A DNA stretch of 64,000 nt from Pseudacidovorax sp. RU35E (GTDB lineage Bacteria > Pseudomonadota > Gammaproteobacteria > Burkholderiales > Burkholderiaceae_C), in the NCBI RefSeq assembly GCF_900156165.1, contig NZ_FTMY01000006.1, forward strand, positions 124,001 to 188,000. Direction: 5' to 3'. The notes under the pieces are model-generated. The model was given only the letters and a program-made list of their open reading frames with translations. It was not told the DNA's origin and searched no databases. Of the stretch, positions 45,998 through 59,490 are shown piece by piece (positions within the stretch are counted from its first letter, which is position 1; the number at the start of each line of letters is the position of its first letter). The translations under genes and the position numbers were made by a program.

Positions 45998-46099
45998 AAG
46001 GCACGGGTTTCGCAAGTTGTCGCGGCGCTCTATAGGCCTGGGTCCGCAGGTCGTCGGGGCGCTCTGAAAGCATGGGTTCACAGGTCGTCGGGGCGGTAA
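45998..46099. repeat. Three 34-bp tandem near-repeats at the left end of repeat element copy 1
   Basis: Units at 45998-46031, 46032-46065 and 46066-46099 share the core CAGGTCGTCGGGGCG (the first copy reads CAAGTTGTCGCGGCG). The third unit runs into the left arm of the composite element, so the tandem seems to be an amplification of that arm's outer edge. Confidence 0.85.
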
Positions 46100-46303
46100 C
46101 CCGGCAGAGGGTGCCGGCATGCGCGCTCCCGGTGCACGCTCGCGCTGACCGGCTTGTTGCACAACGTGGGTGCCCGCTCTCCACCGACGCGCCTGCCGCA
46201 CTGCACGGCGCCGCGAATGGCACCTCCGCACGCACACCGGCACCCTCCGCCTCGACGCTGCGCGCGAGCCCTCCCGTTTTTCGGGCCCTGGGTCTTTGGC
46301 GCC

Positions 46304-46351
46304 GTTGGGCCGTTGGGCCTTTGGGCCTTTGGGCCGTTGGGCCGTTGGGCC
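46304..46351. repeat. 8-bp tandem repeat inside element copy 1
   Basis: Six units of GTTGGGCC or TTTGGGCC, plus a partial seventh. It lies between the left arm and the REP-like pair and is absent from copy 2, so it is a local expansion. Confidence 0.95.
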
Positions 46352-46442
46352 GTTGGCACGATTGGATCTTTGGCGTTGTTGGGTCTTCGGGTGTTCTGGA
46401 CCCTTCGGGCGCAGGAGCTAATACCGGCCAGTCAATCCCAAC

Positions 46443-46559
46443 CCGTTCGGGCTGAGCCTGTCGAAGCCCCTCCCCTAGCGGTTGCACGGAGGCGGCTCAG
46501 GAGCGCCGCTCATATACCCAGCGCGCCGCTCTGCCCTTCGACAGGCTCAGGGCGAACGG
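46443..46559. repeat. REP-like inverted pair inside element copy 1
   Basis: Arms 46443-46466 and 46536-46559, with core GAGCCTGTCGAAG and its complement, separated by 69 nt. Same family as the pairs at 38271 and 59094. Confidence 0.92.
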
Positions 46560-46841
46560 AGTAAGGACCCGTGCGGCCGAACCCGGCCGTTCGGGCGCAG
46601 CGTCCAGGCGGAGGGTGCCGGTGTGCGTGCGGAGGTGCCATTCGCGGCGCCGTGCAGTGCGGCAAGCACGTCGGTGGAGGGCGAGCACCCGTGTCGTGCA
46701 ACAAGCCGGTCAGCGCGAGCGTGCACCGGGAGCACGCATGCCGGCGCCCTCCGCCGGTTAGCGGCCCCGCCACTCGTCAGCCAATCAGGTCTGCCAGACC
46801 AAGCCGCCAGCGTAAAGAAGCACCCGCCGAAGACTACGAAC

Positions 46842-56728: not shown

Positions 56729-56753
56729 TGCCCCTTCCTTCACGGAGACGACC

Positions 56754-58721
56754 ATGAGCGACCAGCCCAACCTCTACCGCCCGCCCCTCGTCCTGGCCGC
56801 CAAGGCCCATGTGTCCGGCCGCGCGGCCTACGACCGCCTGGTCGCCGCAGCCGAGGCCGATCCCGAGGGCTACTGGGGCGGCCTCGCCCGCGAATACGTC
56901 GGCTGGAAGACGCCTTTCACCCGCGTGCTGAACGAGCGCCGCGCACCCTTCTACGAGTGGTTCAACGACGGCACGCTCAATGCCAGCTGGAACTGCCTGG
57001 ATCGCAACATCGAGCGCGGCCTGGGCGCCAAGACGGCGCTGATCTTCGAAGCCGACGACGGCGCCGTCACGCACGTCAGCTACCGCCAGCTGCTGGTGCG
57101 GGTCAACCGCATCGCCAATGCACTGCGTGCCCTGGGCGTGAAGAAGGGCGACCGCGTCGTCATCTACATGGCCATGTCCATCGACGGCGTGGCCGCCATG
57201 CAGGCGTGCGCGCGCATCGGCGCCATCCATTCGGTGGTGTTCGGCGGCTTCTCGGCCCATGCCCTGCGCGACCGCATCGCCGACACCGGCGCCTGCCTGG
57301 TCATCACGGCCGACCAGCAGGTGCGCGGCGGCAAGCAGCTGCCGCTCAAGGCCATCGTGGACGAAGCCCTGGCCCAGGGTGGCTGCGCCAGCGTGCGGCA
57401 TGTGCTGGTGGCACGGCGCACGGGGGCGGCCGTGCCCTTCCAGGCGCCGCGCGACCTGTGGCTGGACGAGCTGGTCGAGGGCCAGAGCGAGCATTGCGAG
57501 CCCGAATGGGTGGAGGCGGAGCATCCGCTCTTCCTGCTCTACACCTCGGGCTCGACGGGGACACCCAAGGGGGTGCAGCACGCCACCGGCGGCTATCTGC
57601 TGCATGCGGCCCTGACCTGTCACTGGACCTTCGACATGAAGGCCGACGACATCTTCTGGTGCACCGCCGACATCGGCTGGGTGACCGGCCACACCTACAT
57701 CGCCTACGGCCCGCTGATGCTGGGCGCGACGCAGATCGTGTTCGAGGGTGTGCCCACGTACCCCGACGCCGGCCGCTTCTGGAAGATGATCGAAGCCCAC
57801 CGGGCGACGATCTTCTACACGGCGCCGACGGCCATCCGCTCGCTCATCAAGGCGGCCGAGGCCAACGAGGCGGTGCATCCGGCACGCTACGACCTGTCGA
57901 GCCTGCGCATCCTGGGCTCGGTGGGCGAGCCCATCAACCCCGCGGCCTGGACCTGGTACCACGAGCATGTGGGCGGCGGGCGCTGCCCCATCGTCGACAC
58001 CTTCTGGCAGACCGAGACGGGTGGCCACATGATCACGCCGCTGCCGGGCGCGACGGACCTGGTGCCGGGCTCCTGCACCCTGCCCTTCCCGGGCATTGCG
58101 GCGGCGGTGGTGGACGAGACCGGCAACGAGCTGCCCTGGGGCCAGGGCGGCATCCTGGTGATCAAGCGGCCGTGGCCGTCGATGATCCGCACGATCTGGG
58201 GCAACCCGGAGCGCTTCCGCAAGGGCTACTTCCCGGAAGAATTCCAGGGCCGCTACTACCTGGCGGGCGACGGCGCGATCCGCGATGCGAAGACGGGCTA
58301 CTTCACGATCACGGGCCGCATCGACGATGTGCTGAACGTGTCGGGCCACCGCATGGGCACGATGGAGATCGAGTCGGCGCTGGTGGCCAAGACCGACCTG
58401 GTGGCCGAGGCCGCGGTGGTGGGGCGCCCGGACGACACGACGGGCGAGGCGATCTGCGCCTTCGTGGTGCTCAAGCGGCCGCGCCCGACGGGCGAGGAGG
58501 CGAAGGCCCTGGCGAGCGAGTTGCGCAACTGGGTGGCCAAGGAGATCGGGCCGATCGCCAAGCCCAAGGACATCCGCTTTGGCGACAACCTGCCCAAGAC
58601 GCGCAGCGGCAAGATCATGCGCCGCCTGCTGCGCAGCATCGCCAAGGGCGAGGCGATCACGCAGGACACGTCGACGCTGGAAAACCCTGCGATCCTGGAG
58701 CAGTTGGCGCAGACGAACTGA
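56754..58721 (+). CDS. acs: Acetyl-CoA synthetase
   Basis: 655-residue Acs, which activates acetate to acetyl-CoA through acetyl-AMP. Motifs: [54 protein letters not shown], and catalytic Lys620 in [12 protein letters not shown], the residue that is acetylated to switch Acs off. The N-terminus has [21 protein letters not shown] sequence ([16 protein letters not shown]), as usual. Operon with the acyl-CoA synthetase; works with ActP to scavenge acetate. Confidence 0.95.
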
Positions 58722-58800
58722 GGGATGCGGGGTCCTGGGCATCGGTGGCTTGTCCCGGTGACGCATGCCTAGGGCGATTGCTTCGGTTGGATCACGGATC

Positions 58801-58845
58801 GCTCGGATCGCTCGGGTCGCTCGGGTCGCTCGGGTCGCTCGGGTC
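58801..58845. repeat. 9-bp tandem repeat beside element copy 2
   Basis: Five units of GCTCGG(A/G)TC in tandem, ending 15 nt before the left arm of element copy 2. Confidence 0.95.
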
Positions 58846-58860
58846 TTGTGGGGCGCCCGC

Positions 58861-59490
58861 GGATCACAGGTCGCACTGGCCGTCGGGACGGTAACCCGGC
58901 AGAGGACGCCGGCATGCGCGCTCCCGGTGCACGCTCGCGCTGACCGGCTTGCCTCACCAGATGCGTGCTCGCTCTCCACCGACGCGCCTTGCGCACTGCA
59001 CGGCGCCGCGAATGGCACCTCCGCGCGCACACCGTCATCCTCCGCCTCGACGCTGCGCCTGAACTGCCGAGTTCGGCCGTCCAGGCCCTAACTCCGTTCG
59101 CCCTGAGCCTGTCGAAGGGCAGAGCGGCGCGCAGCGCAAAGGCGGGCCGTCCTCGCCCGCCTCAGTTCAACCTTGACGGGCGAGGCTTCGACAGGCTCAG
59201 CCCGAACGGTCTGGGGTTGATTGGCCCGCATTGCCGCATGACTCCATGACTCAAGGGCCCCACGGCCCCGCGAACTGAAAAGGGGAGGGCTCGAGCGCAG
59301 CGTACAGGCGGAGGATGCCGGTGTGCGTGCGGAGGTGCCATTCGCGGCGCCGTGCAGTGCGCAAGGCGCGTCGGTGGAGAGCGAGCACCCTTCATGCGCA
59401 ACAAGCCGGTCAGCGCGAGCGTGCACCGGGAGCACGCATGCCGGTGTCCTCTGCCGGGTTACCGTTCCAGCCGCCAGTGCGACCTGTCAC
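58861..59490. repeat. Composite repeat element, copy 2 (inverted relative to copy 1)
   Basis: About 630 bp bounded by inverted arms 58861-59058 and 59295-59490, with the REP-like pair 59094-59209 between. Outer ends share TCACAGGTCGCACTGGC and ACGGTAACCCGGCAGAGG. Outside the arms, the left interior matches the right interior of copy 1 (including GGCAGAGCGGCGCG after the REP arm), and vice versa, showing an inverted copy of the same element. It lies between the converging acs and LysR genes. No gene in it is credible. Confidence 0.9.
59094..59209. repeat. REP-like inverted pair inside element copy 2
   Basis: Arms 59094-59117 and 59186-59209 with core GAGCCTGTCGAAG and complement CTTCGACAGGCTC, separated by 68 nt. 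The arm order (GTTCGCCCTGAG left, CAGCCCGAAC right) is the reverse of copy 1, consistent with inversion. Confidence 0.92.

What the first reader, a model, noticed from the sequence alone, without database searches (positions are those of the whole stretch)
46077..59490. Composite repeat element of about 0.65 kb with long inverted arms, present twice in opposite orientation
Copies at 46077-46764 and 58861-59490 each have inverted terminal arms of about 170-200 bp, all four related, and inside them an inverted REP-like pair. Sequence next to the arms also matches: the right end of copy 1 matches the left end of copy 2 and vice versa, so the element moved or duplicated as a unit and one copy is inverted. 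Both copies lie between converging genes, where they harm no promoter. The long arms would give an RNA with a very large hairpin. I do not recognise it as a named element; it could be a MITE-like mobile unit, a structured RNA, or a chromosome-organising repeat.
Basis: partly seen in the sequence, partly recalled or inferred. Interest (0 to 1): 0.78.

Follow-up and report, generated by a model that had tools for sequence, protein, structure and literature searches.

The report
Twin hairpin RNA-like repeat between genes
Two repeats in this bacterial genome belong to a previously unlisted family of paired, mirror-image hairpin elements that sit between genes in many related bacteria and look selected to fold as RNA, though what they do has not been measured.

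Summary
Both copies exist, with arms of 179 and 193 nt that are 91% complementary. They are two of 11 loci in this genome: 7 inverted pairs and 4 single arms. Relatives that carry it are named Pseudacidovorax and Xenophilus. Both window sites are shared with related species, so these copies are inherited in place. At nine shared sites the arms stay 91-93% identical with 0-1% gaps, while core and flanks fall to 76-78% with many gaps. Each arm folds into a roughly 160-nt structure on the strand that reads outward from the core. Covariation is strong, and cells that are not Watson-Crick are G.U far more than A.C (292 to 4). A covariance model finds the family in 27 of 399 genomes (19 of 141 genera) of the same GTDB family, and in none outside that family among 399 sampled from the order. 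Rfam has no match at gathering score. Best reading: a dispersed MITE-like repeat made of two divergent copies of one structured RNA-like element, lying downstream of genes. Its RNA-level role is inferred; no expression data were available.

The parts
46089..46267 (-). Copy 1, left arm; the RNA-like strand is the minus strand (structured domain about 46098-46257, 21-bp closing helix P1)
46268..46590 (.). Copy 1, variable core: 8-bp tandem repeats (about 46280-46390) and the REP-like pair
   Evidence: core diverges and is gapped between orthologues; at other sites its orientation or content varies
46443..46466 (-). REP-like sequence in the core of copy 1
46536..46559 (+). REP-like sequence in the core of copy 1, inverted mate
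46591..46769 (+). Copy 1, right arm; the RNA-like strand is the plus strand (structured domain about 46601-46760)
58866..59058 (-). Copy 2, left arm with an outer extension 58866-58883; RNA-like strand minus (about 58893-59052)
59059..59294 (.). Copy 2, core; flipped relative to copy 1 and to the orthologous cores of G001 and G007
59094..59117 (-). REP-like sequence in the core of copy 2
59186..59209 (+). REP-like sequence in the core of copy 2, inverted mate
59295..59487 (+). Copy 2, right arm with an outer extension; RNA-like strand plus (about 59301-59460)
44581..45939 (+). Left neighbour of copy 1; transporter-like by eye, not searched against a family library
46842..47993 (-). Right neighbour of copy 1; transporter-like by eye, not searched
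56754..58721 (+). Left neighbour of copy 2; acyl-CoA-synthetase-like by eye, not searched
59552..60451 (-). Right neighbour of copy 2; LysR-regulator-like by eye, not searched

Best explanation
This is a dispersed, non-coding, non-autonomous repeat. It consists of two divergently oriented copies of one roughly 160-nt element around a variable core. SHOWN BY SEQUENCE: each arm has a conserved fold on the strand that reads outward from the core. A helix of about 21 bp, free in sequence between genera, closes a core with nearly invariant internal segments (wider-family consensus GCGCAGGCNCCATTCGCGG ... CCGCGAGCNTGNGCCGGAGAACGC; the window arms differ at a few positions). In the window's clade, differences at fixed sites mostly keep the pairing. 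INFERRED: the arms are held by selection, and its object is RNA, because G.U pairs are accepted and A.C mismatches are not. INFERRED, less sure: the arms act at transcript ends. In either direction of read-through the second arm met is in the foldable sense, so the pair works as a two-way RNA structure. That structure would stop, insulate or cap transcripts of neighbouring, often converging, genes. Spread was MITE-like in the past; the two copies here are now fixed.
For: In alignment A1, 98.5% of 3198 pair cells are standard pairs. 205 cells have changes on both sides, against 58.5 in shuffles (0 of 500 reach it), and slid controls pair at 25-51%. G.U to A.C is 292 to 4. Outside the genus, 79 arms from 22 genomes give 60 distinct P1 helices: 85% paired, against 62% with partners from other genomes and 49% with the other arm type of the same genome. 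At fixed orthologous sites of clade A, one species pair per site, stems differ by 3.0% and unpaired positions by 10.9%. Of 38 single changes in pairs, 32 keep the pair (37% expected), 21 go to G.U and 0 to A.C. Arms have 0-1% gaps, cores 8-30%. Position: 42 of 78 loci convergent and 3 divergent, against 122 and 127 of 605 adjacent gene pairs; per site 14 of 26 convergent and 0 divergent. Paralogous arms are no more alike within a genome than between genomes (0.89 and 0.89), which argues against mere homogenisation.
Against: There is no transcript evidence. No sigma-70-like promoter and no hairpin with a T run was found in either intergenic region. In clade B (Xenophilus) the two strands fold about equally well (RNA strand more stable in 12 of 30 and 18 of 31 arms). 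There, only 12 of 29 single changes keep the pair, which is near the chance value. Outside the genus 10 of 80 arms fold better on the other strand, and in 7 of 22 genomes the ungapped P1 test pairs below 93%, in 5 of them only 33-62%, with 31 A.C cells in all beside 191 G.U. I take these as register shifts, but that was not shown for each. The number of pairs with any double change is not above shuffles (9 against 7.9; 80 of 500 reach it). The two arms of one element are slightly more alike (0.91) than other paralogues (0.89), so some conversion within pairs is possible. Four of 11 loci here keep only one arm. G.T pairs may also be tolerated in single-stranded DNA hairpins (established knowledge, not tested).
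Confidence: 0.5

Rival explanations
1. Twin non-coding RNA genes: each arm is an independent small RNA transcribed outward from promoters in the core, acting in trans or on a protein.
For: The modelled strand reads outward from the core in all 63 two-armed loci of the genus set, and in L162, whose second arm is a split hit. Inner segments are nearly invariant across genera. No Rfam family matches at gathering score.
Against: Cores are unrelated or flipped between some orthologous sites and can be as short as about 34-38 nt between model hits, leaving little room for two promoters. No sigma-70-like promoter was found in either window region. Ten to twenty near-identical gene pairs per genome would be unusual for an sRNA.
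Confidence: 0.22
2. DNA-level mobile repeat: the outward strand folds as single-stranded DNA and is recognised by a transposase or recombinase, and the arms are the ends of a MITE.
For: Near-identical copies with CGGCCC ends in genome G120. Whole-element inversion between G120 and G356 at one site. Mostly different site sets in different clades. A cargo-like ORF between two arms in G015.
Against: No target duplication by eye at 8 G120 sites. No transposase seen by eye in the four extra end matches that I opened. Sites stay fixed between species, yet the arms stay constrained there, which selection for mobility alone does not explain.
Confidence: 0.2
3. Chromosome-organising or protein-binding DNA site (cruciform, supercoiling or nucleoid-associated).
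For: About ten loci shared between the genomes of the window's clade. Both strands carry one foldable arm, so function would not depend on replication direction.
Against: The G.U over A.C asymmetry (292 to 4) is not expected if both strands of a duplex or cruciform matter equally.
Confidence: 0.08

Closest known systems
CIR repeats of Caulobacter and Brucella
   Same: Dispersed intergenic repeat whose predicted RNA has two long inverted-repeat arms joined by a linker (PMC2229807, passages seen).
   Different: Different bacteria. CIRs are described around a GANTC methylation motif; GANTC was not looked for here. This family has two copies of a conserved roughly 160-nt inner fold with nearly invariant segments.
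YPAL/RU-2 of Yersinia
   Same: 168-bp hairpin repeat, intergenic, inserted in or beside areas of dyad symmetry, possible effect on transcript stability (PMC2229807, passages).
   Different: YPAL makes duplications of 3-26 bp; none was evident here. YPAL is described as one unit, this is an inverted twin. The dyad-target idea was inconclusive here.
ERIC/IRU/RU-1 of enterobacteria
   Same: Intergenic repeat with a stem-loop and a proposed role in mRNA stability (PMC2229807, passages).
   Different: 127 bp, enterobacterial, one unit; no sequence comparison was made.
BRE, Beta-proteobacterial repeat element
   Same: Repeated, GC-rich, mostly intergenic, reported in Bordetella and Comamonadaceae (PMC3110155, section 14 read).
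   Different: 75-91 bp units in Bordetella, often in tandem and variable in number. Here the units are about 160 nt in inverted pairs.
REP/BIME
   Same: The cores of both copies hold inverted pairs of a 24-nt REP-like sequence.
   Different: The REP-like sequence occurs 74 times in this genome, 61 of them elsewhere. The arms are not REPs.

Membership tests
MITE (miniature inverted-repeat transposable element) | terminal inverted repeats | tested here: met
   The whole arms are inverted; in G120 outer ends CGGCCC...GGGCCG
MITE (miniature inverted-repeat transposable element) | target-site duplication | tested here: not met
   None by eye at 8 G120 sites; not tested in the window genus, where outer flanks are not conserved between sites
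MITE (miniature inverted-repeat transposable element) | filled and empty orthologous sites | tested here: inconclusive
   Site 1: no clean empty site outside clade A, neighbours not adjacent. The one G120 site followed into G356 held an inverted, deleted copy
MITE (miniature inverted-repeat transposable element) | parent transposon with the same ends | tested here: inconclusive
   End search in G120 and G356; four extra end matches opened, no transposase seen by eye; the other matches were not opened
REP/BIME | 20-40 bp palindromes in high copy | tested here: not met
   Arms are about 160-190 nt at 11 loci; only the core holds REP-like units
Known Rfam RNA family | covariance-model match at the gathering score | tested here: not met
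   4227 families; copy 1 and loci L045, L033, L032 searched, none at gathering score; weak sub-threshold hits only, the best at the REP-like part of copy 1 (E 0.0083); copy 2 not searched
BRE | 75-91 bp units, tandem arrays | tested here: not met
   Unit length and arrangement differ; sequence not compared
YPAL | insertion at dyad-symmetric targets | tested here: inconclusive
   Joined flanks of 9 G120 copies -32.6 against -30.1 kcal/mol for mismatched flanks; 8 of 56 genus loci beyond the 5% control limit
Integron attC site | R and L boxes and association with an integrase | not tested
   Considered only because one end reads GTTAGC; no integrase search was made
Burkholderiales-1 motif (2010 candidate list) | match to the published motif | not testable with these tools
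   Only the table row was seen (PMC2864571 passages); no Rfam accession is given there and supplements were not available

The most novel reading that the evidence does not exclude
A new class of structured RNA, present as divergent twins at about ten or more fixed intergenic sites per genome in the window's clade and so far found in one bacterial family only. It is kept by host selection at its sites and was derived from a MITE-like repeat: a domesticated mobile RNA element that manages the ends of neighbouring transcripts from both directions.
Probability: 0.4. Interest if true: 0.85.

Novelty: new variant of a known kind. Interest (0 to 1): 0.68.

Why it matters
Bacterial hairpin repeats are often treated as mobile debris. 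Here the two arms of a repeat appear selected, at sites shared between species, for the fold of one particular strand, and the closing helix is rebuilt with new sequence in other genera. That makes an old question testable: are intergenic repeats ever used by the host, and at the RNA level? The family is compact, has a working covariance model, and occurs in named type strains (for example Pseudacidovorax intermedius DSM 21352 and Xenophilus aerolatus DSM 19424).

Tried and rejected
Coding: relatives differ by 1- and 2-nt indels inside the arms, so a conserved peptide was rejected. Known plasmid or phage element: copy 1 gave one 35-bp match, at the REP-like part, in 72,556 plasmid records, and a G120 copy gave none. 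Copy 2 gave none in 50,697 phage records. No insertion-sequence library was searched. Viral contigs: 0 stretches with the clade pattern; 5 with the broader pattern, none convincing by the model (best E 0.087). Clean empty site: not found; for site 2 the orthologous neighbour was found at high identity only in the five clade-A genomes. Element inserted into terminator hairpins: suggestive at two G120 sites, but not above control on average. Intrinsic terminator or sigma-70 promoter: none by consensus scan. Transposase-bearing parent: none seen by eye in the copies opened. Orientation of single arms relative to tandem genes: mixed by eye, not used. CsrA-sponge idea (GGA motifs): dropped by eye, because the GGA motifs are not all kept in clade B. 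A function shared by the neighbouring genes was looked for only by printing the 22 flanking proteins of 11 loci; nothing evident, no family search made.

The broad pattern overcounts: three single-hit genomes that I checked (L331, L332, L336) gave no model match, while two others (L333, L337) did; the remaining pattern hits were not checked. The model scan (27 of 399) is therefore the better figure, itself a lower bound because only 7 candidates per genome were scored.

Rows dropped. One search used 9 of 13 clade-A sites; S8 and S11-S13 were left out as single-armed or variable, and only genomes with both arms at a site (30 elements). The split of the clusters into sites S1-S13 is my reading. 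One search aligned 82 of the 165 distinct arms, drawn at random within types. One search dropped 1 of 80 arms; the 80 were taken from the 171 rows after leaving out duplicates, opposite-strand and weak rows. One search counted 78 of 114 loci because 36 lacked a called neighbour on one side; the 114 are distinct sequences, not distinct sites, so recounts by site and the p-values for gene orientation are too small. One search counted 36 of 38 loci outside the genus. Locus L165, with two partial same-strand hits, fell out of the 114 as a duplicate of another record of the same strain.
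Full report
WHAT IS THERE. Copy 1 (46089-46769) and copy 2 (58866-59487) each have two inverted arms of 179 or 193 nt, 91% complementary, with an inverted REP-like pair between them. The four arms are 88-91% identical. The inverted-repeat score of the copy-1 region is 311, against at most 54 in 100 shuffles of its 2-mers. Both copies lie between converging genes found with a home-made codon-model gene finder. 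The cores of the two copies are flipped relative to each other.

COPIES IN THE GENOME AND GENUS. BLAST of one arm gives 18 matches in the own genome, that is 11 loci: seven pairs and four single arms. The covariance model later counted 22 matches at E up to 0.01, of which 18 are in the printed list. One single arm (L027) is bounded by its own short inverted ends. Among 40 relatives, 13 genomes match, all in the same genus. The 63 two-armed loci all have their arms facing the same way, and so has L162 with a split hit. In Xenophilus the two arms are of two different types and the pairs listed have one of each.

FIXED SITES. Flanks of the 114 distinct loci were compared. By my reading ten sites are shared within the window's clade of five genomes, eight of them seen in all five and two in four; both window sites are among them. 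At one site strain NS331 matches on both flanks. Xenophilus loci match clade A at that site on one flank only, so that older sharing is less certain. So the copies are old at their sites, although different clades mostly use different sites. At nine shared sites the left and right arms are 93% and 91% identical with 0-1% gaps. Cores are 76% identical with 8-30% gaps, and flanks 78% with 14-43% gaps. Cores can be flipped (S2) or unrelated (S2, S9, S10) between orthologues. Paralogous arms are equally similar within and between genomes (0.89), so genome-wide homogenisation does not explain the conservation; mate arms are at 0.91, orthologous arms at 0.92.

THE FOLD AND ITS STRAND. All 95 clade-A arms fold better on the strand reading outward from the core (mean -105.1 against -86.8 kcal/mol), as do 8 of 8 NS331 arms. 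In Xenophilus the two strands are about equal. An alignment of 82 of 165 distinct arms gives a closing helix P1 of 21 bp, an extra inner pair, inner helices P2 and P3 and two small hairpins. Counting gives 98.5% of cells paired, a covariation score of 0.246 against 0.103 shuffled, and 205 double-change cells against 58.5; slid controls pair at 25-51%. The count of pairs with any double change (9 against 7.9) is not above shuffles. Cells that are not Watson-Crick are G.U 292, A.C 4 and other 44. A duplex or cruciform would not choose between G.U and A.C.

SELECTION AT FIXED SITES. Using one species pair per site in clade A (18 arm pairs), stems differ at 42 of 1404 positions and unpaired positions at 161 of 1476. 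Of 38 single changes in pairs 32 keep the pair, where 37% is expected; 21 changes went to G.U and none to A.C; two double changes broke a pair. In clade B (9 arm pairs) stems are also slower (29 of 702 against 97 of 729), but only 12 of 29 single changes keep the pair, so that part of the test fails there.

WIDER FAMILY. Model R1 finds matches in 27 of 399 genomes of the GTDB family, 19 of 141 genera, scoring only 7 candidates per genome. Closer search of ten genomes gives 2 to 34 arms each. In the fetched loci the pairs are again arranged minus then plus, with as little as about 34-38 nt between hits. P1 differs in sequence between genera and between the two arms of one element but stays paired: 85% of cells over 79 arms, against 62% and 49% in the two controls. 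Fifteen of 22 genomes reach 93-100%, two 84-86%, and five (G015, G249, G147, G138, G188) only 33-62%, which I take for shifts of register in this ungapped test without having shown it for each. The inner segments GCGCAGGCNCCATTCGCGG and CCGCGAGCNTGNGCCGGAGAACGC are nearly invariant. In 399 genomes drawn from the order only two match, both in the same family. A broad pattern hits 34 of 399 family genomes, with no hit of its reversed control, and 2 of 369 class genomes, both family members; some single hits are false.

BOUNDARIES AND MOBILITY. In genome G120 near-identical copies end at CGGCCC...GGGCCG, about 444 bp, with no evident target duplication at the eight sites displayed. The end sequence was also found in shortened remnants; no transposase was seen by eye in the four opened. 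One G120 site carries an inverted, deleted copy in G356, and another is filled in both. So spread was transposon-like at some time, but the mechanism is unknown.

CONTEXT. In the genus 42 of 78 loci lie between converging genes, 33 in tandem and 3 between diverging genes. The baseline is 122, 356 and 127 of 605 adjacent pairs from the same loci and the window, element sites included. Orthologous sites are counted more than once there. Counted once per site, linking loci by at least one matching flank, 14 of 26 sites are convergent, 12 tandem and none divergent; linking by two flanks, 19, 15 and 1 of 35. Outside the genus the counts are 17, 16 and 3 of 36, with the gene finder less reliable in G015. 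No promoter or T-run terminator is predicted in either window region.

COMPARISON. Rfam gave no match at gathering scores for copy 1 and three relatives. The closest kinds in print that I saw are CIR, YPAL and ERIC repeats (PMC2229807, passages) and BRE (PMC3110155, section 14 read, other passages). The 2010 list of 104 candidate RNAs names a Burkholderiales-1 motif that I could not compare (PMC2864571, passages). In seven literature searches no row listed described this element; I saw only the 1 to 15 rows listed in each and the starts of abstracts, and the library holds open-access papers only.

VERDICT. A real, strand-specific structured repeat family that looks selected, absent from Rfam and from the literature rows seen. 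That it works as RNA is likely but not shown; what it does is a hypothesis.

Noticed in passing
L291 1868-3134 (genome G015): An ORF with a lipoprotein-like start (by eye) lies between two arms of this family, as if carried as cargo.
   Followed up: partly
L033 1119-1277 and 1504-1662: The middle modules of the two arm types look exchanged reciprocally in Xenophilus aerolatus, as expected from recombination between the inverted arms.
   Followed up: no
window 46443-46559, 59094-59209 and 74 places in G000 in all: A 24-nt REP-like family (CTTCGACARGCTCAGSSCGAACGG) is dispersed in the genome, often as inverted pairs; its transposase was not sought.
   Followed up: partly
L081, L083, L062, L098, L138 and other contig ends: Several draft assemblies break at or inside this element, as expected for a strong inverted repeat.
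   Followed up: no
G130: One genome has 54 pattern hits (29 forward, 25 reverse), the most of the 399, and may show recent amplification.
   Followed up: no
window 46280-46390 and 58795-58857: Short 8-9 bp tandem repeats lie in the core of copy 1 and just outside copy 2.
   Followed up: no
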